The notes below the pieces were generated by a model. The model worked only from the letters and a program-made list of their open reading frames with translations, was not told where the DNA came from and did not search any database. Positions 1 through 58,423 of a stretch of 64,000 bases of DNA are shown here, piece after piece. Origin of the DNA: Conoideocrella luteorostrata (lineage: Eukaryota > Ascomycota > Sordariomycetes > Hypocreales > Clavicipitaceae). Numbering within the stretch: the stretch's first letter is position 1; every line of letters starts with the position of its first letter. The stretch spans positions 186,001-250,000 of the forward strand of contig JASWJB010000024.1 of assembly GCA_032433595.1 (NCBI GenBank), given 5' to 3'. The position numbers and the translations under genes are program-made.

Positions 1-368
1 AGGTTTCCGTACGGTAAAGGGGCAAGGTCGCCCATAAAACCAAACTTGCAATCTCCACGCCAAGAAGCGCCGCTGTTGCAGCCTAAATCATGCGCACAGC
101 ATATCAGAGTCTGGCTGTGGGAGAGGGATGAATAAGTAAGATTTTGACATACCAGCTTGACCCATGAAAGAACACTCCCAGAAACATAAACGGGTGATTT
201 GAAATAATAGAACAGGTAGAATGGAGATGCGATAATTAATAGGCATGCTGGAAGAATAGTCAAAATGCTCTGTTCAAACAGGAGGGTAAAATCAAACTCC
301 GGCCGCAGCTGCGGTCCGAAGGAGTCATCACCAATGATCCCCATAGCTCTCAACACATTTTTTGTCAT
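1..368 (-). CDS. ABC transporter, ABCC/MRP-type, N-terminal fragment (runs off left edge)
   Basis: Start of a large multidrug-type ABC exporter of the plasma or vacuolar membrane; only the N-terminal TMD0 part lies in the window. Exon 1 (368-153) begins MTKNVLRAMGIIGDDSFGP, followed by FDFTLLFEQSILTILPA and a first membrane helix; the DDSFGP and FDFTLLFEQSIL stretches are typical of fungal MRP-like proteins. A 70-bp intron (152-83, GTATGT...TTAG) separates exon 2 (82-1), which encodes AATAALLGVEIASLVLWATL, a second helix. The splice keeps frame in phase 0. The nucleotide-binding domains would lie left of position 1. The family call is from recalled family sequence; substrate is unknown. Confidence 0.85.
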   Translation of the reverse strand, partial: MTKNVLRAMGIIGDDSFGPQLRPEFDFTLLFEQSILTILPACLLIIASPFYLFYYFKSPVYVSGSVLSWVKLVCQNLTYSSLSHSQTLICCAHDLGCNSGASWRGDCKFGFMGDLAPLPYGN

Positions 369-1840
369 CTTGCTAGCTGTAGCTCTCTACGCGATCATAT
401 GAATTTAGTCGCAAATTGAGAGCTTTCAACAGCGGCACGACCTTCGATAACTGAGGAGCAGAAGAAGGAGAAGTTGTCGACGTTGGCAGCTGTGGAGAGG
501 TTCAGGCAGGTTCGACGCTCACTCTCCAACTAGGAAGGTTCTGTGTGCTGCGGTTGGGGCCTGTTGATTTGTGGTGTGGTGGCAAACAGACCGTCCAGAT
601 ACCAGATAACTAACCAACTACTAGAACAAGACATGGCACACGGAACAGAGGTGGAGGTGGACTAGCCATCAATCAATTGATCAGTGTTGGACACTACCTT
701 ACAGGGAGCAAACATGCTGCAACCCGCTATTTTAGTCTCAGTCCACGGCCCTATAGCAAATGTGACGCTGTGCTGCCAGTTGGGCGTCCTGTACTCAGTA
801 CCGGCTAGTGATAGGCACTCTGACGTTGTTAGCCTAGGTACTCTAACCACGGCAGAGAACTACCAATCCCTAACTGTCCAGTTGGCAACCCAGACGTTAC
901 TCAAGGCCTCGCACTGCTACAGCCATGCGAGTACTCCGTACAGGCGTTCAATATACAGAGTACTCCATACGGTGTACCTGTCGTTGGCGACTTGCCATGC
1001 GAAGCGTGGGAATAGGGCTGGAGTGACAGAAACACTTAAAAAGTTCGTACAGCTCCATAATTACTGCATTGTAGTGGACAAGAGCGTAGATCATTGACCC
1101 AACGTGGAAGATTGGGCAATGCCTAAGTAACGAGGCTGGCAGATTATGTCGCGCAAGACGGCACCACTTGAAGCGTGCGGCCAACTTCCCTGCAAACCAT
1201 GCATCGTACTCCGTACGATCCGAGGACATGGGCTCTCGCGGCCCTCCCTGGATTGCGGGGGCGCCGAAAGTTGGCCGCGAACTGCATGAGTAAAGTGGGC
1301 TCCAGGGCACGGCCACCTGTTGGCTGATGATTTTCAGCAGTGTCGTTGCGGTACGGTAAGTACCCAGGTACCTAGGTGGCATGCACAATGAAGTGGGCAG
1401 TTTACAGGAACAGCCGCAAAAGGTCCATACAGCCAGACTACTGCAGATGCAGAAGTTTTATTAGCGGACAAATCATCGGCCAACCGCCCAAGTACTTACG
1501 TGACTACAATGTACCACGCACAGGAAACTTGCCTAGGTACTTTACTTGCTGCTTGAATAACTACAGGGTTGACGAAACTTTGGGCCCCCCTCTTCAGTTG
1601 AACTATGGTCTGATCTGCACAGCATCCCGCCGCTAATCCGAGATACAGTCGAACAGGTCGCAGACTACTAGTAATCGCTAGGCTCCGAGCACGTCAATTG
1701 GACCTGCGAGATCATGGTTGCGAGGCATATCGCTTGCCACAGGAAGGTATCAACATAATAGCCATCGTAATTTTTACATGTTGACAAACATCAGCGACAT
1801 ACGAGAAACTCAGCATGCGATCGTTCATTAGATTTGGGGT
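369..1840. other. Intergenic, no gene seen
   Basis: This is the upstream region of the ABC transporter. Open frames at 684-1097 (+) and 948-1388 (-) overlap, match no family and lack codon character. Two copies of the dispersed 9-mer TACTCCGTA sit at 932-940 and 1207-1215. Confidence 0.6.
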
Positions 1841-1888
1841 CCATTCTTTGTAATCTAGTGCCATTCTTTGTAATCTAGTGCCATTCTT
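1841..1888. repeat. 20-bp direct tandem repeat, 2.4 copies
   Basis: The unit CCATTCTTTGTAATCTAGTG occurs exactly at 1841-1860 and 1861-1880, and a third copy begins at 1881 (CCATTCTT). It lies just beyond the 3' end of the decayed MFS gene. Confidence 0.9.
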
Positions 1889-1900
1889 CCTCTATGATTG

Positions 1901-3534
1901 TTACCGAGTCTCGATGGATTCCTCCTCGCCATCAACTCGAATCCTTGCTACGATGATGGCGGCAATACCAGTCAAAACACCAGCCACGATAAACGGAAGT
2001 CCATACCACTGTTGCCCCAATCTTAGTCCAACTTGGAAGGCGTATGCCAACCCAGGTCCTGCTACCATGGCACCAAGGTTTTCTAAAAAGCCTATTAACG
2101 AAAAGAGGACTGCGACCTAATTTTCTGCTGCTAGCTGTGCTATTAAGCACTTAACGCTTGCCTCGAAGCCTGTAATTAGAGCAAACGGCAGGGGGCAATA
2201 ATCAAGATAGCCACGTTGGGAGCTAACGCGATGCCAAATGCTCCTATTGTTTTAAGAACAATAGTGTATTTTGCAAGAAGCTTGTCCTTTCTCTGCGAAG
2301 GCATCTTGGCCCTTACAAGAGCCTGGCTGATAAGCGGCAAGATGAACAAAACCAGGACAAACTTCGCCATGGACTTGACAGATACTGCCAAACTTGCCTT
2401 CCGTAAAACGTAGGTCAGTAAACTCTAGACGTCTTCGCTAATAGTAATTGAGAGATATGGATTAAAAGAGTGTACTATACCTCTGCCCAAGAAAATGAGA
2501 AGCGTTTGGAGATGAACTGCAGTAGCAGTCCATTTACCCAGCTGCCCAGTGTTGTGAATAATGTCGTGAAAAGTAAGGATCCAACCTTAATATTTTCTGT
2601 CAGTGCGGATCGAAACGATCTAGCTGTATCTCTGACTGAGGAGATTGTCGTTGTCCATCTGAATGTGTTTGATGGGATATTTTGGGAAGCCAGAGTGTGG
2701 CTGCAATTGTTTATCATCTTCTTCTGTGTGTTTCACTTGTGGTTCTTTGAAGTGAATGGCTTCCGGGACAGCAAGCGAGATGGGGAACATTACGACAAGA
2801 CAAAAGCACGAAAGGCAGCCTGTGAGCCAAGGGCCGCACTTCATGGCAAGATATGCCAAGGGGGCGCCTACTACTCTCGTACCTGCCATGGCTGCAGAGA
2901 TGTAGAAAAACGTATTGAATCTAAATAAACAACGTTAATATCGGGCTATTGTAGTTCCAGTTGACGGCGTCTAAATATGAGTTTAATAGGTAGAGCAATC
3001 CTGAACCATTACGTTTGAAATACCTTTGTGTCTGCGATGTTATGTCGCTTGCGATGGTGTATATCAACTCTAGCATAACATATATATCTCCTCCGGCAAA
3101 CGCGGTTACTGGTGTCAGCCAGATGAATTTAAGAGGTAAAAATCGTACTAAGCAGAAACAGTTGTCAGTTTGCTATAATTTTTGCAACAAGTGTTGCTAC
3201 CAGAATAAAAATAGCGGCCAATGCAAACGTATCAAATAACAACATCTATATCACTGACACCATGATATTGAGCATACAGCATCATATGGATGACTTGGCA
3301 TAGAGTCCTAAGTTTCTTTGCTAAACCCCATCGGCTACAAAAATGCCTGCAGAAACATAGCGAGCATATGGGAGCAACAATTATGTCCGGAAAGAATAAC
3401 ACGAAACTATCCAGTGTCTGTGAGCCGTTATCGGAGGCAAGAGTTTTGTATCGAGGTGTAACCGTCACTCTTCCCGACGTAAACACAAATATATTCCCTT
3501 CACGCAGAGCAGATCGTGATTCTAAAATAACCAT
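1901..3534 (-). pseudogene. MFS transporter, decayed copy
   Basis: Remnants of a 12-TM major facilitator transporter are spread over all three minus frames in the right order. A degraded N-terminal part (about 3500-3240) is followed by the central segment AGGDIYVMLELIYTIASDI, the loop start VGAPLAYLAMKCGPWL, then SLLFTTLFTTLGSWVNGLLL and ISKRFSFSWAE, SVKSMAKFVLVLFILPLISQ, and the C-terminal helices LFSLIGFLENLGAMVAGP and GLPFIVAGVLTGIAAIIVAR. Frames change several times. A TAG stop interrupts the piece between AAEN and VAVLFSL, where relatives keep reading, and a one-base shift follows IALAPNVAILIIA. These breaks cannot be repaired by consensus introns, so I call it a pseudogene. Local base composition is AT-rich; RIP-type C-to-T decay is possible but not shown. 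Confidence 0.75.
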
Positions 3535-3579
3535 CTGCGTGTCTTGATCTCACTTGTGTCGCTAGTGGGGTACAAACAC

Positions 3580-3952
3580 TTAAGTTTGCGCTCTGTAGAC
3601 AGCGTACGAGTCCGGAGTCACGACTTTGTTGTCGTTAGTTTGCCTGACAGTGAGTGTATCCGGAGTCACGACTTTGTTGTCGTTAGTTTGCCTGACAGTG
3701 AGTGTATCCGGAGTCATGATTTTGTTGTCGTTAGTTTGCCTGACAGTGAGTTTATCCGGAGTCAGGATTTTGTTGTCGTTAGTTTGCCTGATAGTGAGCG
3801 TATCCGAAGGAGCGACACCAGGAACTGTGGTTACATAAGGGTTAGAGAAGTGAGATTCAACAAGTCTTCGATCTACGCTTACTTGGATTGGCTTGCACAA
3901 GCAACGCTCCAAGCATGAGCACCAGCGATGCACGAGCAACAGAGAACAACAT
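3580..3952 (-). CDS. Small secreted tandem-repeat protein (16-residue repeats)
   Basis: A 104-residue protein I do not recognise. Exon 1 (3952-3883) encodes MLFSVARASLVLMLGALLVQA, a textbook signal peptide. A 58-bp intron (3882-3825) with GTAAGC donor, CTAAC branch site and CACAG acceptor joins it in frame to exon 2 (3824-3580). After a short IPGVAPS linker come four 16-residue repeats of the form DTLTVRQTNDNKVVTP, with small changes (T/K at position 2, V/I at 5, and IL, IM or VV at 13-14), then DSYAVYRAQT and stop. The mature protein has no cysteine and no dibasic Kex2 site, so it is neither a typical cysteine-rich effector nor a ustiloxin-type peptide precursor. Splice-site quality, exact phase and the signal peptide support a real gene. 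Expression and role are unknown; secreted effector, surface or matrix protein are options. Confidence 0.7.
3612..3803. repeat. 48-bp coding minisatellite, 4 copies
   Basis: Units begin at 3612, 3660, 3708 and 3756, each with CCGGAGTCA or a close variant. The first two are identical over all 48 bases; the third and fourth differ at a few positions. A partial fifth unit begins at 3804. The period is a multiple of three, so gain or loss of units keeps the frame of the secreted repeat protein on the minus strand. Confidence 0.95.
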
Positions 3953-5590
3953 GACGAGCTTGCGACGATTGAATCGGGAAACCGTTGTAATGGTGTCTAA
4001 TACCGGGGGATGGTTAGAAGAGAACAGGAGTCCCGACCTTGGGAAGAGGAGGGGACCTTGCGGAATTTGTAGGTACACTCACTGGTCCGTCGGACTCAGC
4101 TGGGCATCCGCCGCTGACTGGTAGGCGGCACCTATCAACTAAAAACAAGTTCTGACAGCGCCTGACAGCTAAATTTGAGCTGCATGTACTCCATAGTGGG
4201 GCATCAAAAGGGCCCAGGCGGGCTACTGAACGGTTGGTACATTGGTTGAATAGTGTCCAGTAACTATACCAGTAGAATTTGACCGCGTTTCAGCTAGATG
4301 AATGATACAATTTTTAGCATCGTCCACGATTGATGTAAGACTTTCTTAACAATAGAACTTGTAATAGAAGCTACTGGCATAGATTGGCGCCGCTGCGATT
4401 TACGATTATGTCCACGTCTTTCGCCTGAAAATTGGTGGGCTGATTTCTTTTGGCTCAGCATGGTACTTCGATGTTAGTCTATCATCCCTAGGCGTTTATG
4501 CAAAACTACATAAATTATTGGCAACGAAGAGGAAGCACGTAGCCCAAATGGGAACGTCGTTACATATAGCTCACTATATTCTATCGCAATGCGGGTTTGT
4601 CTCGGGCGCTCCATCTGTGCTCCGTTCGGAGTACTCTGTAACTAATGTGTGGGCGAGCAAGCCACAAGTAACCTCGGCGAACATATCTGCGGTGACCGAA
4701 GTGGAGTTTTACTCCGCCACTGAGCTAACTTTCTTAGGCATTCAACTTGGGTACTGCGATGGCTCTGGATGGGAATTCCGCGCCTACGTCCCGCATGGCT
4801 GGCAAAGCTGGACCGCGATAGCTTTGAGTGGGAAAATGCAGTGTCAAATTGACTTCCCATCATACAAGGGCGCTTATTACACTAGTACGAGCAACGTTAA
4901 ACTCCCACTACTGCAGGGCGAATATAGAGAAGCGGCCATCCCAAACGACCCCTGCACAGTCGCCAGCCACATGCAAGACATTCCACGTTCTCGAACAGTT
5001 GTCATACAGTAGTACCACGTATCATGGCGCGGAGGGCCTATTATGCAACATTTACTCCGTAAATATTGCGGCATTGTGCCAGCGCCCGAGAGTAAACCAA
5101 AGTTGCGTCTCCGTTATTTACAATGAACAAACAGACTCTTGTTTATCAAGGCTACCTCACTTCTTCATCAACAACTTTGTTGGATCAAAACATATGTACT
5201 CACAACGCTTCGGCGCCGAGAGACCAGTTTAGAAGACTCGGAGCGTAACCTTGAATAGCTTGGCTCGTTAAAATTGATGTACCACGAGGACTTGGCATCG
5301 TAGGCTCTTTCAGGTATAACAGGTCAAGTGGGCAAGCGGCCACTCAACTAGATATCGGAAACGCGCACTCGTATTCCACAGCGTGAATGTAGAGGGCAAT
5401 TAGATCACTCACAAATAGAGTTAAATTATGGGAGCAAAAGTCAATGATTAGACTCAAATGAGTCACGAGGGCATTCTCCCTCTATATACGTCTATAATTG
5501 CTACAATCAAATGTTTCATTCAAAGGTCTGGATCTCTTCTCATGTAGGTGAGGGCCGCCGCAGAACACAAATCATGGCTACAATAGCCGT
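3953..5590. other. Intergenic, no supported gene
   Basis: This is the upstream region of the repeat protein and then unassigned sequence. A 164-codon plus-strand frame at 4518-5012 has no recognisable domain and opposes another open frame. One TACTCCGTA is at 5053-5061. Confidence 0.5.
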
Positions 5591-5614
5591 TGAAATTGAA
5601 ATTGAAATTGAAAT
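5591..5614. repeat. (TGAAAT)4 microsatellite
   Basis: Four perfect TGAAAT units, followed by further AATGAAGAA-type sequence. The stretch between this repeat and 6015 shows no gene and would be the 3' flank of the GH72 gene. Confidence 0.9.
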
Positions 5615-6015
5615 GAAGAATGAAGAAATATTCAAGAAATAAAGAGTCTCTATATACTGGTATCATTAAAATCTGCGCCAGGTAGAGGCCCAGTACCCTT
5701 TAACATCACATCCTTGGCAGTGATTCCTCTGCGATTCACCGCCATGCTCTACCTCAGACTTGCCACTGAGGGACCACAAAATACGATCAGTAGCGACAAG
5801 CAAGACGATCCTGCTAGTACCAAGATGGAAACTCTCCAACACTTGTTACTGAGAATGAGGCAACTGCGTAGTTGTCAACTGATTCTGCTAACCAATGTCC
5901 GTTGCAATATGAACACAGAGTATCAGACATATTGATTATAAATTCATGATACATTTCTGTAGTATCCAACAGAATACAACGAAAATCAACGCAAATCAAT
6001 TTTAACTAGATGACC

Positions 6016-7744
6016 TCATAGTACCAGCATGGAAACACCCGCCAAAAGCGACACGAAACCAGCAACACAAAAACCCCATGAACCTGCGCCAAGACTCAGG
6101 GAATGCCCGATTCGAATGGCACTGCTTTCCTCTTTACTGGCACCCGTGCTCTTTCCACCGACCGGCACAGTTGCCGTCGCGGCCTGGCTGTTAATGATGC
6201 TTGCCGAAGCCAATACCGCTTTGCACGTTTCGTCTACCTCTGACTTCTGCAACTTCGCATTGCCCTCAAAGTTACAAGCACCCGCAGCCCTTTTCTGTGA
6301 CGTATAGTACGTATCGAGAACATGCGTCAACTTAGCCGCATCATCGCACATGCTGTAGGCGCCGTATACACCGGTCGCCGTGTGGCCAGTAATTCCGACG
6401 CAAGCCCCGGTTTTGCTGCCGCAAGTGAAGTCAAACATCTGTCGAACATATTGGTTGGATAAATTGGGCTTGGGTACACAGGAAGCTGCTTTCACCATGC
6501 AATCGCACAGCCGTCTATCTGGGGTTGGGGGGAGTGCCTTGTTTGCCTCCCAGGTGTTGGTCAACTTAGGACATTCACCCATCTTTCCGGCCGGAGTGTA
6601 GTCATTGATATTGATAGCTTTGGGTGTGGCTTGATTGACTTGTTTCTTTAACTCATTGAAATCTTTCAATTTGGTGGCCGCACCTTTTTCGACTTTAACA
6701 AGTCCTGCATATCATGTTAGCTAGATCATGGTAGGGAAGAAGCCCGCTGTACTGACCAAAGTCATTCTCCTCTTGGAAATACATGTAAACGATACCGCCG
6801 CTGAACACCGAAGATATGTTATTGGAGTATAATGCTGCTGTCTCTGTAAATTTGCGGTTCACTGCACCATCTTTATTGCACCCATATTCTGCAAAGAATA
6901 CTGGAACAGAATAGTTCGCAAAGAATGCAGCTTGGGCGTTGTATCCAGAAAGTTCCGCGTTAGACTCTCCACACCATGAATAGATGTTATATCCCCAAAA
7001 GTCGATCGAATCATTAGTATTGTCACAGTTGAAGTAATGGGCGATTTGATCTCGGATATCTGTATTATCGTTTGCGGCATAACCCACACCTAGCCAGCGT
7101 GTAATCTGCTTCTGGGATTTGATGTAATTTTTCGTGTCGCGAACAGCAGCTTTCACATACGCCGAGGCACCCGTGTTGTTCTTCTGGTCGCTGACTTCAT
7201 TGCCAGCTAAATACCCAATCACATTGGAATATTGAGAAAGCTCGTCAATGACCTTCTGATATCGCTCAAATATCGCGGTATCCCATTGCGGATTGTCCCT
7301 ATTGATGGACAAGCTTGGTTCACCAAGGTCGGAGATAACATAGATGCCAGCTTCCTGGAGCAACCTCATGCAAGCTGAGTGATCAGCAGATGGATCGATT
7401 GCATATGTCCGAATAACATTGGTGCCTAATTCTTTAAGAAGGGGCACGTCTCGTTCGCAACTTGACTTGTCGGCAAGCGGATCATGGTATTTGGTGCTTT
7501 TCGTGGTGGCTCCGCCAGCGGCCGAATCTTGCTGGTAAGCAATACCTTTCATGAAGAACTGGGTCCCATTTTTGTAGAAGAATTTGGATCCCTAGTTGTA
7601 TTTACAGTCAGAATACAAAATAAGCTAAATGGAGATCTGCTTCAAGTCACCTCATGAGCGTACCTTGACCTCGATAGGCTGTAGATCGGCGCTGCTTCCT
7701 GCCGCCAAGGCTAGGAGCGAAACAACTCTCCAAAGCGACTTCAT
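6016..7744 (-). CDS. GPI-anchored 1,3-beta-glucanosyltransferase, GH72 with X8 domain (Gas/Gel family)
   Basis: Cell-wall enzyme that cuts and re-joins beta-1,3-glucan chains at the outer plasma membrane. Three exons give 534 residues: 7744-7664 (signal peptide MKSLWRVVSLLALAAGSSA), 7591-6757 and 6704-6016. The introns are 7663-7592 (GTACGC...CTAG) and 6756-6705 (GTCAGT...GCAG). The GH72 domain has the acid/base glutamate in AGNEVSD and the nucleophile in FFAEYGC. The second splice joins ENDFG to LVKVEKG, as in relatives. The C-terminal Cys-rich X8/CBM43 domain runs from about CPKLTNTW to ACNFEG, followed by a Ser/Ala-rich stretch and a hydrophobic tail ending VSLLAGVSMLVL, which is a GPI-attachment signal. 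Length matches Gel/Gas proteins with X8. I am sure of the family; the paralogue cannot be named by eye. Confidence 0.95.
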
Positions 7745-15979: not shown

Positions 15980-16525
15980 TCACGCGTAGACTTTCAATGC
16001 CCGCTGAAAGCGAAAGTCTATAGAGGAGATAAGCAGAGGAGCCACGTCTTTAATGCTCTTGACGAGTTTTTCCGTCAGCGCCGCTCCAAACTCGTCCGTG
16101 GCCTTCTGCAGATGCTGCAAGTCAGACTTTACAAGAAAGGAAGCGGATGCAATGCCAAGGATGGCTTTATCAAATTGAGGCTTCTTTCTGGTGATGTTGT
16201 CAAGAACATCGAAGATGTCGTGAGTAAGTGAGTTGATGGAGACAGCAACACTGGCGGATTCCTCGTCATTAAGAGCGGCGGATTTAGACGAAGTCGCCGT
16301 AGCGCCATCTATGTCCTTTTGGAGAGTGACGACTTGGCCTTGAATCTGAAGCGCAGTCTTAGTGCCTGCGAGTCCTCCGTTGAAAGTATTCAGTGTATTG
16401 TTCACTGTGACTAGTTGTTTTGATATAGTCTCCAGGGCGGCAGTAATGCTTTCGCCGTCTCTGCGGACAGGTGTGGTAGCGACCACACAAACCAGGAGTT
16501 GTAGAAGGAGAGGTAAAAACAACAT
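15980..16525 (-). CDS. HsbA-like hydrophobic surface-binding secreted protein (copy 1)
   Basis: A 181-residue single-exon secreted protein. Signal peptide MLFLPLLLQLLVCVVATT is followed by PVRRD, a dibasic site that could be a Kex2 cut. The rest is an alpha-helical HsbA fold: ITAALETISKQLVTVNNTLNTF at the start, a long middle helix pair, and FGAALTEKLVKSIKDVAPLL near the end. In Aspergillus oryzae HsbA coats hydrophobic polyester surfaces and recruits an esterase/cutinase. Here the gene lies about 900 bp from a class 3 lipase and on the same strand, with a second HsbA-like gene on the lipase's other side. The two HsbA copies are clearly diverged from each other in sequence, so they are not a recent duplicate pair. 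Confidence 0.88.
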   Translation of the reverse strand: MLFLPLLLQLLVCVVATTPVRRDGESITAALETISKQLVTVNNTLNTFNGGLAGTKTALQIQGQVVTLQKDIDGATATSSKSAALNDEESASVAVSINSLTHDIFDVLDNITRKKPQFDKAILGIASASFLVKSDLQHLQKATDEFGAALTEKLVKSIKDVAPLLISSIDFRFQRALKVYA

Positions 16526-17424
16526 GGCGATGATGGATTGAAGATACTGGGCAACCAGCAGAGCTTACGGGACTGTGTTGAAATGAAGTGAATGTTCGAC
16601 TTAGGAGGTCTGAATAGGATGAAAAGAGTGTTGTGGCATTCGCGCCGCGTAACGGGTGATCTGTCTCAGACAACAACTAAATCCAGAGTCTTCAGCAATG
16701 GATCGGCCGCCTTTGCACGAGGTGAGCCTAACTAATGCTAAAGCAATATAATCGATAGGACAAAATGCAAACGGCGTTGCGACATGGAAGGCCAGTGCAG
16801 ACCACCACTTTCCGGCTTAGTACAGCCATGCTAGGCAGTCGATACAACGACGGCCACCTCGTTTGCCGTATTGGTCGTTTGTGACAATACCAGGTACAGT
16901 ATAGTGAGACTGGTCCTTCATCTGTACTCCGTAGTGTATGTTGCATTACGGAGTACGGAGTATACAGCGACAAATTGAGGGCTCAGACACATTCTCCACC
17001 TTCACATGTCTCATTGAAGCCCGATTTCCCCAGATCCTGGTAATAACATCCTGGTACCACGCTGTACTAGTAGCCGTGACTGGGAGGTTAATCGACTACA
17101 TTATCAGATGGTCTGATGCAGTTACCTCTACAGTACCGTAAGGGCTTCCCTGCGCGGCATTGAGTTAATTTGTTATAGACCATCATGGGGTCATGACGAT
17201 AGCGTCACTGCATATTTCCAGAGCAAAGCTGCCAATCCCGCGTGATGCGCGCCCCTTAAGTAATCTGGCTCATTCCGTTGGAGATTATTACTAGTTAACT
17301 GCTCCGTAGTGTCTAACTATAAACAAACCCTGGCTAATTCCACCGGGGAGTTTATTGAATTCCAACTCCGCAGGTTCCACTCCACCAAGCGCCCTTGCCC
17401 TGTGAGCAGGCTAACGGCAGACAC
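16526..17424. other. Intergenic between HsbA copy 1 and lipase
   Basis: No gene seen. Three copies of the 9-mer TACTCCGTA/TACGGAGTA lie close together at 16925-16933, 16947-16955 and 16954-16962, the last two overlapping. Confidence 0.5.
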
Positions 17425-18465: not shown

Positions 18466-19089
18466 TCTGTTGAAACCTATACGCTTTTTTTCTTTCTTTG
18501 TCTCCAGAGGATGCAAAATTCCAGGACGTCCAGTTGAAGCAATGGGCTCGAGGATAGGATCCCGATGTTATGCACCAAAATCATAATTTGACTCGGACAA
18601 ACGTTCCCGCCTCACACGTCCGTCGTCTCCTTCTGGCAAGCTTAAACGCTAGCAACCCCAGAAAGGAACCCGTTACGAATCTTCGACCAACTAGTCGAGA
18701 GCTCGGTTGCGGTGTTGCGTTAAGATGGGCAGACCGGCCGCATTCCCGTCAGTGCGGCGAGCATGGGGTGGTTACATAGCGTGCAAGGGCTGGGCCACCG
18801 AATGGATGGGCTGACGGGAATGCAATGAGCGGAACCCTATCCCGGCGATTCAGTCCCTATCCTAAAGTAATAGCGATAATATAAAGTGCCGGCCGACGCG
18901 ACTGGGGACGCAATTAAATTGATGGAAAGTGAGCCGAGGTTTTAGATGGGCAAAAACTAACACGAGATGTCTTCGTTCGAATGACAATCCCTGTTGTTGA
19001 TAACGGTTTAGTATAAGCCGTCAGGTCAGACACGTCAACTCAGCTCTCTTCAGACCAGAATCATCTGTCATCTCCATCTTCATCTCATC
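18466..19089. promoter_or_regulatory. Shared divergent promoter, lipase / HsbA copy 2
   Basis: 624 bp separate the two start codons. It contains a perfect 12-bp inverted repeat, CATTCCCGTCAG at 18741-18752 and CTGACGGGAATG at 18811-18822. A CCGAGG at 18934-18939 matches the core bound by FarA/FarB-type fatty-acid regulators in aspergilli. A TATAA lies at 19012-19016, about 75 bp before the HsbA start, with a CT-rich leader after it. The hexamer alone is weak evidence, since chance gives about 0.3 per 600 bp. Confidence 0.5.
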
Positions 19090-19629
19090 ATGAGATTCCT
19101 CTACACACTAGTCACTTTTGTTTGCGCCGCTGCCGTCAATGCAGCGGACTCACAAACGGTGAGAGGCGACATTGCCCAACTCTCCACGCTTCTGGATAGT
19201 CTCGCAGCCGATGTGAAGCTCGTCAGGCCCGGCTCTGGAGGCATCGCTCAAGCACTGCAGGTCGAGGTAGACAGCGTCGATATCCACAAGTGCCTCCTCA
19301 AATCCTACGACGACGCCAAAGCATCGCCGGCATTTGGATTCAGCTCGCTAATCGTCGGCTTGGACTTCATCCAGCTGCAGCCGAAAGTGAAGAAGACCCT
19401 GGAGGATGTCACCGCTCAGAAGGAAAGCCTTGGAGAGCTCGGCCTTGTCGTTTTGTCGAGCTTGTATCAGCTCAAACAAGACACGGACCGGTTTGGAGAG
19501 GCTGCGATTGAGAAGCTTGGCACGTTGGAGAAAGCTATTGCACCGGCCATCATTAAGAAGATTGACGAGTCGTTTAACGACGCAATTGTTGCGTATGGGG
19601 GCAAAGGTAAGCCAGCTGTTGTCCGTTGA
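19090..19629 (+). CDS. HsbA-like hydrophobic surface-binding secreted protein (copy 2)
   Basis: A 179-residue protein. Signal peptide MRFLYTLVTFVCAAAVNA, then an all-helical HsbA domain (VRGDIAQLSTLLDSLAADVK, later FGEAAIEKLGTLEKAIAPAI, ending FNDAIVAYGGKG). The only cysteine after the signal peptide is the one in DIHKCLLKS. A possible intron at the very end (GTAAGC at 19605, branch TACTGAC, CAACAG at 19669) would replace the tail KPAVVR by a short alternative, giving YGGKAT and stop; both forms are plausible and the domain is unaffected. It is divergent from the lipase gene and likely works with it at hydrophobic surfaces. Confidence 0.87.
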   Translation: MRFLYTLVTFVCAAAVNAADSQTVRGDIAQLSTLLDSLAADVKLVRPGSGGIAQALQVEVDSVDIHKCLLKSYDDAKASPAFGFSSLIVGLDFIQLQPKVKKTLEDVTAQKESLGELGLVVLSSLYQLKQDTDRFGEAAIEKLGTLEKAIAPAIIKKIDESFNDAIVAYGGKGKPAVVR

Positions 19630-52102: not shown

Positions 52103-53649
52103 GAGGAGATGGTCAAAGGGAACAACTCGGTCCCTATTGATGCGTAGAGGATATGTGCTCGAAGGTAGTGAATTGAGTTCTATTGATGACACGTTGCTTA
52201 GGCTATTCCTGATTTCTTTAGTGTCCGAGTGTTTGGCGTGTGTCATGTCACTGGCCTTATATCGCAGCAACGATTGTTTACATCACGCTGCTCGCTCCAG
52301 GTATAGTTATTGGGGGGCAAGGGCTCAGTTGCAGCAGGCGTGGGATTGAGAGCTCACGATGCGAATCATCACACGAATGTTCTACTTCCGACTACCGTAC
52401 AGTGCCATCCACCCTATAGTCTTAACAAAGGCCCTGCCCGTGGAGCTCGATAGATTAACATGATGGAATAGCTTTACCCCATATCTAAAAAGGATAATTG
52501 GCTCTTATTTTAATTTCTTTACCATTTCTTCCGACGGTGTCCTTAGTCCCGGCATGTGACATTTTTGGCTCAATGCACGGATAATACAACTATTGGCAAT
52601 TTTATCTTTAATATCACTCATTTACATTTTGTTGACCATCGAAATCGAAAGCTGAGGGATGCGAGCATAGAGGTGTTTAGCTGCAGCCTTGTTCGCTGGC
52701 TTCCCACAATCTGCCACCCACTTCAATATTCCGCATCTGGAGCTACTGCTACTGCGATCTACTCGCTTCGCCATTTGTACCCATATTTCAAGCCATTATT
52801 CCATCATTTTTCGGTCATGCCTACGATAAGTTGTACAGGTATACTTCTGCTATAGGCATGGGTATGTCTCAGCGCTGATAGCTCACTCCAACTTACTCAA
52901 TCAAAATTGGTTTGTCGCTGATTAAACTCAGGGTTGTTCGAAGTACAACTTATGATATTGTGATTCTCTTCGTCAGAATATGTACACATATCTTTGATGA
53001 CTATTTATGCAACTATGACGAGTTGAAGAAGCGACGAGGAATCGCTAGTAGGACTTCCGGCTTCTGAAAGGACAGTCGACAGGAAGCTAACTTAGGCTCC
53101 AATGTTGTTGGCGGACTGGACAAAACCAACCTCGGTGAATACAGCTAGGAATTAATGCCTAAAATTGATTGGGCACGATGAGCGATGCGAGCGGGATGCT
53201 GCCTGGTTGTTCGACATACTATTGGGTGGAAGTTGGGTACCACCTGTCAGTGCATTACATTTAGGGGCGCGACACCATTGAGACTGTCAAGCATCTCCTC
53301 TCGAAATTCATAGTATACTACTTAGTGGACAGTTTTCTGCATTCTCAGCCTCAATTATCTTTCAACGCTGGGCTAGTCACTATCGCTTCCTTCCACGACC
53401 CAAAAGAGTATCACTAACTCGTGTAACCTCACATCTGACGACGCGAATCAGCAGACAGCAGAAACTATCCGACAGAGTCTGCTCCGTCTCCGCCCGTGCC
53501 CTCGGGATCACCACCAATCCATATTTACCGAGGAACTCGAAGGCGGTGTTTACGGAAACGAGCGAGGGCACGCTTCGGAAAGTCGAGCGATCGCTTCGAA
53601 CGAAAAGACCAACAGCGATTAAGGACCCATTTCGATCCCAGAGAATAGA
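52103..53649. other. Intergenic, AT-rich, upstream of the NLR gene
   Basis: No gene seen. The stretch 53380-53571 is open on the minus strand, but it lies within the likely leader of the NLR gene and has no match. Confidence 0.5.
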
Positions 53650-56600
53650 ATGGAGACGGGTAGTGATGGTGCTACTGCTCGAAAACCAGCGGACAGCGGC
53701 GCCAGGCCCCTAGCAGACTACACTGTGGGTTGGATCTGCGCCACCAGCACCGAGTATGTTGCCGCGCAGGCTTTTCTCGATGAGAAGTATGGAAGTCCAG
53801 AGCATACACACCCCAAAGATAACAATGATTATACTTTGGGTAGAGCTGGGAAACACAACGTCGTCATCGCCGTTTTGCCTCTGGGGGAGTATGGTGCCTC
53901 TTCTGCAACAGGCGTCGCAAAAGATATGCTACGCAGCTTTCATAATCTCAGAATTGGCCTCATGGTTGGTATTGGAGGAGGTGCTCCAAACCAAAAGCAT
54001 GACATTCGCCTTGGCGACGTCGTGGTGAGTGCCCCTGGGGATGGCAGTGGTGGCGTGTTTCAATACGACTTTGGTAAGATGATTCAGGGCCAGAGTTTTC
54101 TTCCGACAGGATATCTAAACCAACCGCCAGCCTTCTTAAGGGCAGCGGTTAACGGACTCAAAGCTCAGTATGAAGTCGACGGCCACCAGCTCGAGCCAGC
54201 CATCGAGGGTGTTTTCAAACGCAAACCAAGACTGCGGGCGAAGTATAGTAAGCCAGATCTACTCAGCGATATACTATATCAAGCTGAAGTCATCCACCCT
54301 CCAAGCAGTGAAACAAACTGTATGGTATCATGTGGCACCGACCCAACGAAAATAATACCCAGACGCAAAAGGACTGAATATGACGATGACCCAGCTATTC
54401 ACTATGGCTCAATTGCCTCCGCCAATGCTTTAGTGACAAACGCTACAATCCGAGACAAGCTTTCAGCTGAGAAAGGTGTCCTCTGTTTTGAAACGGAAGC
54501 AGCGGGATTAATGAACCAATTCCCTTGCCTAGTGGTCCGCGGTATTTGTGACTACTCAGACACCCACAAGCACAAGGAATGGCAAGGGTACGCAGCGATG
54601 ACAGCCGCTGCGTACGCGAAGGATCTTCTGTGTCGTCTAGTTCCTGCTAAGATCAAAGCTGAAAAGAAAGTCTGCGATATTCTATCCGGTACGTTTAAAG
54701 TCTCGGCGTCGTATCACGATATGTTTGCATGCTAATAAGACAACAGGCCTTCATGAAGTTGCAGAAGACCACCGGGATATAGCAAAGGAGCAGCTTCAAA
54801 TACAAAAAGATCGTGCCAAGGAGATGCTATCCAAAGAGGAACGCGAGTGCCATCGATTATTCCGACTCAAAAACAGCAGCAGCGATACAACATACGAGTG
54901 GTACAAAGCTCGGGTAGAAGAGAGGGTTGAAGGCACATGTGTTTGGCTTCTTGAGCACGAACACTTCCAATCTTGGCTAAAAGATGATGCCGGTCCTCTA
55001 TTGGTCTCTGCTGACCCTGGCTGTGGAAAGTCAGTGCTAGCTAAGTACCTGATTGACCACTACCTGCCACAATCGTCAACTATCTGTTATTTCTTTTTTA
55101 AAGATCAAGACCAGAACACTGTTCAGCAAGCACTCTGTGCTGTGCTCCACCAGTTGTTTTCTCAAATGCCATCTCTGATAAAACACGCCATACCACAATA
55201 TCACAAAAATGGGCCAGAGTTAGCCAAAAATACAGAATTGCTCTGGCAGATCTTGCGAAACGCTGTTAAAGATTCCCAGGCAGGGCAGGTGATTGTAGTT
55301 CTGGATGCCTTGGACGAATGCGCCGAATCAGAGTTTGCCAATCTTGTGCGGAATGTGGAGAGCCAATTTCGCCAGGGTCAATTAGGTTGCGGCAAAATAA
55401 AATATCTTCTAACCTGCCGCCCGTATGAACGCACTATATCTGAGTTTCGAATCTTACTAAACACATTTCCGAAAATCCATATCCCCGGAGAGGAAGAGTC
55501 AGATAAAATTAGTCAGGAGGTAAACAGAGTCATCACTTGTCGAGTTAATCAGCTATCAGAGAAGAAGCAGCTCTGGCCTGATATAAAGAATTCTTTAGAG
55601 GAAAAGCTACGAGAGACCACTCACCGTACTTATCTCTGGGTATATCTTTGTTTTGACTACTTGGATAAAGAGGACTTTAAAAAGACAGCAAAGGGGGTAG
55701 AAGCCGCTATTGCAACACTCCCGAGGAGCATTGATGAAGCTTATGAGCAAATACTCCAAAAGTCAAAGGATCATTCCCTTGCCCGAAAGGTACTGAGCAT
55801 CATCTTAGCGGCGCATCGACCTCTAACATTAGCAGAGATGAATGTTGCAGTAAATGTGGATAATGACAGCAAAGTAAAGTCAACCCACGATCTGGATCTA
55901 GAGATCGAAGTAGACTTCTGGAATCGTCTTAGGTCATCGTGTGGTCTGTTTATCTCAAGTTACGGGGGTAAGATTTATTTTCTCCACCAAACCGCTCGCG
56001 AGTTTCTCATTGCAGATTCACCGTCAGACACAAATCTTTCGCGACAGACACTATGGAAGCGCTCTATTACGGTCCAGCACGCACAACTCGTTCTTGCGGA
56101 AGTCTGCGTGCTCTATCTGAGCTATTTTAACTCCAGCAACAGCCTTCTTACACATGAGGAGGACGAAGAGGACGAAGGCAACTACGCTCTCTTAAATTAC
56201 GCCTCTGAAAGATGGGGCTTTCACTTCCGGGGAGCAGAGATCAATGAAGATGCAAGTTTAGTTATTTGCGCACTCAACATCTGTGATTCAGGGTCCAGGA
56301 GCTTTTCAATATGGTCTGAAATCTTCTCGGCTAAGAACGTAGACATAACCAACTTTACAAATCTTATGGTGGCGTCATATTTTGGCCACGAAGCCATCGC
56401 GAAGCTGCTTCTAGATGATGGCGCCGAGGTCGACTCAAAAGATATATATGATCAAACGCCGCTCTTATGGGCCGCTAAAGAAGGCCATGAAACTATTGCA
56501 AAGCTGCTGCTAGATAAAGGCGCCGAGGTTGACTCGAGGGATAATAAGTATAGCCAGACGCCGCTCTTATGGGCCGCTAAAGAAGGCCACGAAGCTATCG

Positions 56601-58423
56601 CGAAGCTGCTTGTTGATAAAGGCGCCGCGGTTAACTCAAAGAATAGTTCTGGCCGAACGTCACTCTCATGGGCTGCCGAAAGAGGTCACGAAACTATCGC
56701 GAAGCTGCTTATTGATAAAGGCGCCGCGGTTAACTTAAAGTGTAGTTCTAGCCGAACGCCACTCGTACGGGCTGCCGAAAGAGGTCACGAAGCTATCGCG
56801 AAGCTGCTTGTTGATAAAGGCGCCGCGGTAAACTTAAAGTGTAGTTCTAGCCGAACGCCGCTCTTATGGGCCGCTAAAGAAGGCCACGAAGCTATCGCGA
56901 AGCTGCTTGTTGATAAAGGCGCCGCGGTTAACTTAAAGTGTAGTTCTGGCCGAACGCCACTCTCATGGGCTGCCGAAAGAGGTCACGAAGCTATCGCGAA
57001 GCTACTGCTAGATAAAGGCGCCGAGGTTAACTCGAGGGATAACAAGTATAGCCAGACACCGCTCTTATGGGCTACCGAAAGCGGCCATAAAGCTATTGCG
57101 AAGCTGCTGCTAGATAGAGGCGCCGCAGTAAACTCAAAGTGTAGTTCTGGCCGAACGCCACTCTCATGGGTTGCCGAAAGAGGTCACGAAGCTATTGTGA
57201 AGCTGCTTGTTGATAAAGGCGCCGAGGTTGACTCGAGGGATAATAAGTATAGCCAGACACCGCTCTTATGGGCTGCCAAAAGTGGTCACGAAGCTATTGC
57301 GAAGCTGCTTGTTGATAAAGGCGCCGAGGTCGACTCAAAAGATATATATAGTCGGACGCCGCTCTTATGGGCTGCCGAAAGCGGCCACGAAGCTGTTGCG
57401 AAGCTGCTGCTAGATAGAGGCGCTAACTCAAAGGATAGTAGTTCTGGCCGAACGCCACTCTCATGGGTTGCCGAAAGAGGTCACGAAGCTATTGTGAAGC
57501 TGCTTGTTGATAAAGGCGCCGAGGTTGACTCGAGGGATAATAGGCATAGCCAGACGCCGCTCTTATGGGCTGCCAAAAGTGGTCACGAAGCTATTGCGAA
57601 GCTGCTTGTTGATAAAGGCGCCGAGGTTGACGCGAGGGATAGGTATAGCCTAACGCCGCTCTTATGGGCTGTCGAAAGCGGCCACGAAGCTATCACGAAG
57701 CTACTGCTAGATAGAGGCGCCGCGGTTAACTTAAAGTGTAGTTCTGGCCGAACGCCACTCATACGGGCTGCCGAAAGAGGTGACGAAGCTTTCACGAAGC
57801 TGCTTGTTGATAAAGGCGCCGAGGTTGACGCGAGTGATGAGTATAGCCAAACGCCACTCATATGGGCTGCCCTAGAAGGTCACGAAGCTATCGCGAAGCT
57901 GCTTGTTGATAAAGGCGCCGCGGTAAACTTAAAGTGTAGTTCTGGCCGAACGCCACTCTCATGGGCTGCCGAAAGAGGTCACGAAGCTATCGCGAAGCTA
58001 CTGCTAGATAAAGGCGCCGAGGTTGACTCAAAGAGTAGTTCTGGTCGAACGCCACTCTCATGGGCTGCCCTAGAAGGTCACGAAGCTATCGCGAAGCTGC
58101 TTGTTGATAAAGGCGCCGAGGTTGACTCGAGGGATAATACGTATAGCCAGACGCCGCTCTCATGGGCTGCCGAAAGCGGCTACGAAGCTGTTGCGAAGCT
58201 GCTGCTTGATAAAGGCGCCGCGGTTAACTCAAAGTGTAGTTCTGGCCGAACGCCACTCTCATGGGTTGCCGAAAGAGGTCACGAAGCTATCGCGAAGATG
58301 CTGCTAGATAAAGGCGCTGAGGTTAACTTACAAGATAATCATGGTCAGACACCGCTCTCATGGGCTATTGACAGCGGCCACGAGGCCATCGCGAAGCTGT
58401 TGCTAGATAACCATGACAGATAA
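53650..58423 (+). CDS. NLR-type STAND protein: PNP-NACHT-ankyrin (21 repeats)
   Basis: A 1571-residue signalling NTPase of the fungal NLR class. Exon 1 53650-54688, exon 2 54747-58423; the 58-bp intron (GTACGT, GCTAAT, AACAG) joins DILS-G-LHEVAEDH. Residues about 25-340: PNP/UDP-phosphorylase effector-type domain with GYTVGWICATSTEY-like start (DYTVGWICATSTEY), VGIGGGAP, RLGDVVVS, CFETEAAGLMN and RGICDYSDTHKHKEW. Residues about 430-700: NACHT NTPase with Walker A ADPGCGKS (435-442) and Walker B VVLDALDEC (D533-C538). Residues 884-1571: 21 ankyrin repeats of mostly 33-34 residues, highly alike (TPLxWAAxxGHEAIAKLLxDKGA). In the family, the repeats bind ligand, NACHT oligomerises and the N-domain acts; fungal members serve allorecognition and probably immunity. 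The last repeat breaks off at LLLDNHDR. Confidence 0.95.
56357..58420 (+). repeat. Ankyrin-coding tandem array, about 99-bp units, with a 297-bp higher-order repeat
   Basis: Twenty-one units of 96-102 bp encode the NLR ankyrin domain. Blocks such as GAAGCTATCGCGAAGCTGCT recur nearly unchanged. The segment starting CTCTCATGGGTTGCC at 57161 recurs at 57458, a period of 297 bp covering three ankyrin units (9-11 against 12-14) with few differences. Units fall into a few types by their last residues (SSGR, KYSQ, IYSR), mixed along the array. Confidence 0.95.

What the first reader, a model, noticed from the sequence alone, without database searches (positions are those of the whole stretch)
3580..3952. 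Unrecognised secreted protein built of four 16-residue repeats
Seen: signal peptide, consensus 58-bp intron in exact phase, then four near-identical repeats with no cysteine and no Kex2 dibasic sites. Known: secreted repeat proteins in fungi are often effectors, repellents or peptide precursors, and the peptide precursors usually carry KR sites. Inference: a repeat-number-variable secreted protein of a type I do not know. It would be hidden from ORF callers because exon 1 and exon 2 are in different frames.
Basis: partly seen in the sequence, partly recalled or inferred. Interest (0 to 1): 0.75.

Follow-up and report, generated by a model that had tools for sequence, protein, structure and literature searches.

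The report
Small secreted repeat protein, fungal orphan
A scale-insect-killing fungus carries what looks like a real but unannotated gene for a small secreted protein made of four near-identical 16-residue repeats; no relatives were found, but small secreted repeat proteins of this general sort are common in fungi.

Summary
On the minus strand, ATG at 3952, a 58-base consensus intron (3882-3825) and a stop at 3580 give 104 residues: a signal-peptide-like leader and four 16-residue repeats, no cysteine, no dibasic site. A leader-plus-intron scan, written after seeing the target, hits only here in the window (1121 ATG frames), 0 times in 210 kb of the same genome, and in 3 of 100 random windows. 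The genome is very probably Conoideocrella luteorostrata, a scale-insect pathogen. The protein seems unannotated; no relative was found in the protein collection, Pfam or PDB, and no second copy in the genome. It is not a Kex2-processed repeat precursor by the published definition; none of 57 UstYa matches lies on its contig. Codon use and repeat differences do not prove coding. Best reading: a lineage-restricted, non-enzymatic secreted protein, perhaps a multivalent surface binder. The kind is common: 69,264 secreted tandem-repeat proteins in 1461 fungal assemblies, 7,878 of Kex2 type. Interest is low to moderate.

The parts
3883..3952 (-). Exon 1: ATG and secretory leader MLFSVARASLVLMLGALLVQA|NP, probable cleavage after residue 21
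   Evidence: crude signal-peptide rule, h-region mean hydropathy 2.99
3825..3882 (-). 58-base intron, phase 1, GTAAGC donor, CTAAC branch-like site, CAG acceptor
   Evidence: no transcript evidence available
3580..3824 (-). Exon 2 with TAA stop: linker (I)PGVAPS, four 16-residue repeats, tail DSYAVYRAQT
3611..3806 (-). 48-bp tandem array, 4.1 copies, 95% matches; in coding direction units 3 and 4 are identical, units 1 and 2 differ from them by 4 and 3 bases

Best explanation
A real, unannotated, lineage-restricted gene for a small secreted protein. Shown from sequence: leader, consensus intron, in-frame array, stop. Inferred: the leader takes the protein into the secretory pathway and is cut after Ala21, leaving an 83-residue, 9.25-kDa, near-neutral, cysteine-free chain rich in Thr, Asn, Asp and Val. 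Inferred: it is not an enzyme; the near-identical repeats present several copies of one short beta-prone or disordered surface, so it works by multivalent, individually weak binding to the fungal wall, extracellular matrix or insect surface (adhesion, coating or shielding). The array arose and stays uniform by tandem duplication or slippage. Probability that it is a translated secreted protein: about 0.85. Probability that multivalent surface binding is its role, given that: about 0.5.
For: Gene model. Single locus in the genome. No enzyme domain or relative found. Composition, no Cys, no dibasic or N-glycosylation site. No confident globular fold from the exon-2 product as a single sequence; its few short strands lie mostly on the repeated LT(I/V)RQ segments: (mean pLDDT 42.3). 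Precedent that repeat domains of secreted effectors can be extended, surface-rich scaffolds or binders and can change in unit number: review PMC4617103, section 5 and part 1 of 2 of section 7 read. Rsp3 of Ustilago maydis: search listing and start of abstract only.
Against: No transcript, peptide or relative was available. Codon use of the unit is only weakly coding-like (0.04 per codon; coding 48-mers 0.059 +/- 0.10, open 48-mers of window 1-6000, which include the array itself, -0.039 +/- 0.089); on the synonymous-only score a plus frame that has stops scores marginally higher (0.043 against 0.041). Differences between units look the most conservative in this frame (mean BLOSUM 1.6, the other five frames 0.33 or less) but no more so than random placement of the same changes (7970 of 20000 null draws as good). 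The tail's likeness to the unit is weak in DNA (256 of 5000 shuffles as good) and absent in protein (11358 of 20000); the head shows none to speak of (856 of 5000). The binding role rests on analogy alone.
Confidence: 0.45

Rival explanations
1. Precursor of repeated small peptides released by a protease other than Kex2 (for example cutting after the single K or R of each unit): a repeat-peptide or RiPP precursor of a non-Kex2 kind.
For: A leader plus near-identical 16-residue units, each with a conserved R and a conserved K in the NDNK segment, is the layout of repeat-peptide precursors. The genome has 57 UstYa exon-level matches elsewhere, so this fungus may make such compounds.
Against: No dibasic site. 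0 of 57 UstYa matches are on contig C24. The neighbouring genes recognised are ordinary (GH72, TrkH, carboxylesterase, HsbA; ABC transporter in the 10 kb to the left).
Confidence: 0.13
2. A very young, possibly de novo, gene with no selected function: an intergenic minisatellite captured behind a secretory leader, translated or not.
For: Single copy, no relatives found. The stretch 1-6000 looks gene-poor: of its 14 stop-to-stop frames of at least 90 aa, the 10 that were scanned have no Pfam match over cut-off. It lies beside a degraded transporter-like stretch. No sign of selection between repeat units. Three of six frames are open through the array.
Against: Leader, donor, branch site, acceptor and reading phase all fit at one spot, which random windows and 210 kb of the same genome did not give with a product this long.
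Confidence: 0.25
3. A noncoding minisatellite, or coding on the plus strand; the minus-strand model is chance.
For: Plus-strand frames 3526-3915 and 3626-3838 are also open.
Against: The first plus frame has no ATG; the second has its first ATG only at residue 31, inside the array. A script that looked for a plus-strand ATG exon and one consensus-like intron (acceptor before 3625) leading through the array found none. These two plus frames score lowest of the six on codon use. A protein search that included the longer plus frame without its first 8 residues found nothing, but covered only proteins of about 129-410 aa.
Confidence: 0.07
4. A host-directed effector that acts on insect immunity by binding a specific target.
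For: The fungus is a scale-insect pathogen; the protein is small, secretory-leader-bearing and an orphan.
Against: No expression data, no cysteines. Small secreted proteins, mostly from orphan genes, occur in fungi of every lifestyle (start of abstract of PMC7105643), so these features do not point to a host.
Confidence: 0.1

Closest known systems
Secreted tandem-repeat proteins of fungi at large (the 69,264 counted in PMC7329392 before the Kex2 filter)
   Same: Signal peptide plus internal tandem repeats, the two features by which that set was made
   Different: No sequence relative found; probably not annotated in its own genome
Kex2-processed repeat proteins (KEPs), precursors of dikaritin RiPPs such as ustiloxin
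   Same: Leader plus at least three near-identical repeats of at least 8 residues
   Different: No KR/KK/RK/RR between repeats; no UstYa match on the contig
Repeat-containing secreted effectors, e.g. Ustilago maydis Rsp3 and the candidate effector Cin1 of Venturia inaequalis
   Same: Secreted proteins dominated by internal repeats; unit number often varies between isolates of such effectors (review PMC4617103; Rsp3 length polymorphism, start of abstract)
   Different: Not compared by sequence here beyond the general searches; role, expression and variation of this protein untested

Membership tests
Secreted tandem-repeat proteins (signal peptide plus repeats) | N-terminal signal peptide | tested here: met
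   By a crude hydropathy and cleavage-site rule only, not SignalP
Secreted tandem-repeat proteins (signal peptide plus repeats) | Tandem amino-acid repeats in the mature chain | tested here: met
   Four 16-residue units; TRF period 48, 95% matches
KEP (Kex2-processed repeat protein) | At least 3 tandem repeats of at least 8 aa between KR/KK/RK/RR sites | tested here: not met
   0 dibasic sites in the 104 residues; definition read in PMC7329392 section 13
Dikaritin-type RiPP cluster | UstYa (PF11807) gene near the precursor | tested here: not met
   57 exon-level matches in the genome, 0 on contig C24; matches are stated by the tool to be lower bounds
Repeat-containing effector | Secreted during infection and acts on the host | not testable with these tools
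   No expression or infection data
Repeat-containing effector | Repeat number differs among isolates (common, not obligatory) | not testable with these tools
   The genome has no relatives among those held

The most novel reading that the evidence does not exclude
A genus- or species-restricted secreted protein, born from an intergenic 48-bp minisatellite that gained a leader and intron, whose Thr/Asn-rich near-identical repeats stack as an extended beta or amyloid-like surface polymer, used by a scale-insect pathogen to coat its hyphae or hold on to the host.
Probability: 0.08. Interest if true: 0.55.

Novelty: new member of a known kind. Interest (0 to 1): 0.22.

Why it matters
If translated, it adds one orphan to the small secreted repeat proteins of insect-pathogenic fungi and suggests that the current annotation misses short spliced repeat genes. 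Such genes can change by whole repeat units, so it could serve as a polymorphic marker or a test case for new-gene birth. It answers no long-standing question by itself.

Tried and rejected
Kex2 repeat precursor or dikaritin: rejected as membership (no dibasic site; no UstYa match on the contig). Pfam: the spliced product's best match is Gp5_trimer_C (E 0.018, 15.6 bits, cut-off 30.9), the plus frame's DUF7464 (E 0.0015, 18.5 bits, cut-off 27); both are below cut-off and taken as chance. The minus stop-to-stop frame 3583-3996 gave 0 families at E up to 0.01. PDB by sequence: 0 at E up to 1. Fold of the exon-2 product alone: mean pLDDT 42.3, so no fold search was made. Codon-use and conservative-substitution tests did not separate coding from chance. 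Other copies of the unit in the genome: none with up to 3 mismatches in a 23-base core beyond the four here. Rfam and tRNA scans of the window: nothing. Searches of papers., for secreted repeat proteins of entomopathogens and orphan secreted proteins, listed 6 of 6 and 12 of 56 papers (17 distinct); none was opened and no title or abstract start names this protein.

Full report
What is there. The minus strand between 3952 and 3580 reads ATG, 70 coding bases, a 58-base intron with GTAAGC donor, CTAAC branch-like site and CAG acceptor, then 245 bases to and including TAA. The product is 104 residues: a hydrophobic leader ending VQA|NP, a short IPGVAPS linker, four 16-residue units and the tail DSYAVYRAQT. 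Units 3 and 4 are identical; units 1 and 2 differ from them by 4 and 3 bases. TRF reports the array independently (period 48, 4.1 copies, 95% matches, score 343). The mature 83 residues have MW 9253, pI 8.3, GRAVY -0.81, 16 Thr, no Cys and no N-glycosylation sequon, and the 104 have no dibasic site; on the charge-hydropathy plot the mature chain falls at 0.410 against a boundary of 0.418, i.e. borderline.

Is it chance? I wrote a rule (ATG frame of at least 20 aa, uncharged hydrophobic 9-mer, small-x-small cleavage site, GTRAGY donor, CTRAC branch site, YAG acceptor, intron 45-110). In the window 1121 ATG frames were examined; 40 were leader-like and 1 had the intron as well: this one. In 100 first-order Markov windows (mean 15.3 leader-like frames) 3 had a hit and no hit gave a product of 100 residues or more. 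In 21 stretches (210 kb: L007 beside the window and one from each of contigs C1-C20, not drawn at random) 3945 frames gave 113 leader-like and 0 hits; TRF found 3 arrays there with at least 3 copies and a period of at least 15. The rule was made after the target was known and is strict, so it misses many real genes and the exact odds should not be taken literally; that the window's only hit runs in phase into its only 48-base array is still hard to get by accident.

What the tests did not show. Codon use of the unit in the minus frame is the highest of the six on the full score but compatible with both coding and surrounding DNA; on the synonymous-only score a plus frame with stops is marginally higher. 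Differences between units look conservative (V/I/L/M, one T/K), the most so of the six frames (the shifted frames were compared over three units, not four), but no more so than random placement of the same changes (7970 of 20000 as good). The array's openness is weak evidence, as 48 is a multiple of three and two plus-strand frames are open too; one of these has no ATG, the other none before residue 31, and no plus-strand ATG exon with one consensus-like intron leads in.

Whose genome. A carboxylesterase frame at 12175-13623 matches a protein of Conoideocrella luteorostrata (QQS21_002144) at 100% over 97% of the query, on a contig of 256,252 bases, which is the length of contig C24 on which the window lies. 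The next named matches are Metarhizium at 66-72% identity. The genome announcement (PMC12352038; part 1 of 2 of the text read) describes a scale-insect pathogen, an Illumina 2 x 150 assembly of 47.39 Mb in 864 scaffolds and 12,844 genes by funannotate; the held genome is 46.4 Mb in 620 contigs, so it is very probably this species, perhaps a trimmed form of that assembly.

Relatives. The protein search found nothing at E up to 1 among 2657 candidates, which are limited to 0.55-1.75 times the query's length, and nothing at E up to 10 with a joined query that allowed longer relatives and the plus frame (the 7994 candidates sharing most words were scored). Nothing in Pfam over cut-off or PDB. In its own genome only itself is found, and the 23-base repeat core occurs four times, all here. 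Since another protein of the same contig is in that collection, the gene is probably not annotated. I had no DNA of fungal relatives, so age and selection stay open. In a database this large weak relatives score below threshold, so 'no relative' is bounded.

Surroundings. To the right are a GH72 glucanosyltransferase with X8 domain (6019-7591), a TrkH cation transporter and the carboxylesterase; in the 10 kb to the left of the window, ABC-transporter exons. Directly beside the gene lies what looks like a degraded transporter (family recalled; Pfam gave no match for the two frames tried); part of it has a 68% relative on contig C106. I saw no sign of a biosynthetic cluster, and none of the 57 UstYa matches found in the genome is on this contig.

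How it likely works. Shown: the anatomy. Inferred: secretion, leader removal and a chain of repeated, Thr/Asn-rich, beta-prone or disordered segments. The single-sequence model of the exon-2 product has mean pLDDT 42.3 with a few short strands, so no fold can be claimed. A cysteine-free chain of near-identical units with no recognised enzyme domain is best suited to multivalent weak binding at a surface; the review PMC4617103 (section 5, and part 1 of 2 of section 7, read) gives binding and scaffold roles for repeat domains of effectors. Which surface (own wall, matrix, insect) is not decided by any evidence here.

How new. PMC7329392 (section 13 read; four passages by search) started from 14,491,621 proteins in 1461 assemblies, found 1,123,012 with signal peptides, 69,264 of these with tandem repeats, and 7,878 of those that met the Kex2 definition. 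By my subtraction 61,386, about 42 per assembly, are secreted repeat proteins outside that class. The finding is therefore one more member of a large kind, with an unfamiliar sequence.

Noticed in passing
window 53623-58420 (+): PNP_UDP_1, NACHT-type (NPHP3_N) and ankyrin matches in two overlapping frames: it looks like a fungal NOD-like-receptor gene with about 19.5 copies of a 99-bp ankyrin unit (78% matches).
   Followed up: no
window about 1900-3240 (-): Looks like a degraded membrane transporter with shifted frames (family recalled, no Pfam match in the two frames tried); the stretch 1972-2384 is 68% identical to contig C106, 8148-8564.
   Followed up: partly
window 15983-16564 (-) and 19012-19626 (+): Two frames with HsbA (hydrophobic surface binding protein A) domains within 4 kb.
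   Followed up: no
G000 contigs C54 (117619-126436) and C8 (212294-230590): Runs of several UstYa matches, possible dikaritin-type RiPP clusters of this fungus.
   Followed up: no
window 1841-1888: A 20-bp unit repeated 2.4 times with 100% matches.
   Followed up: no
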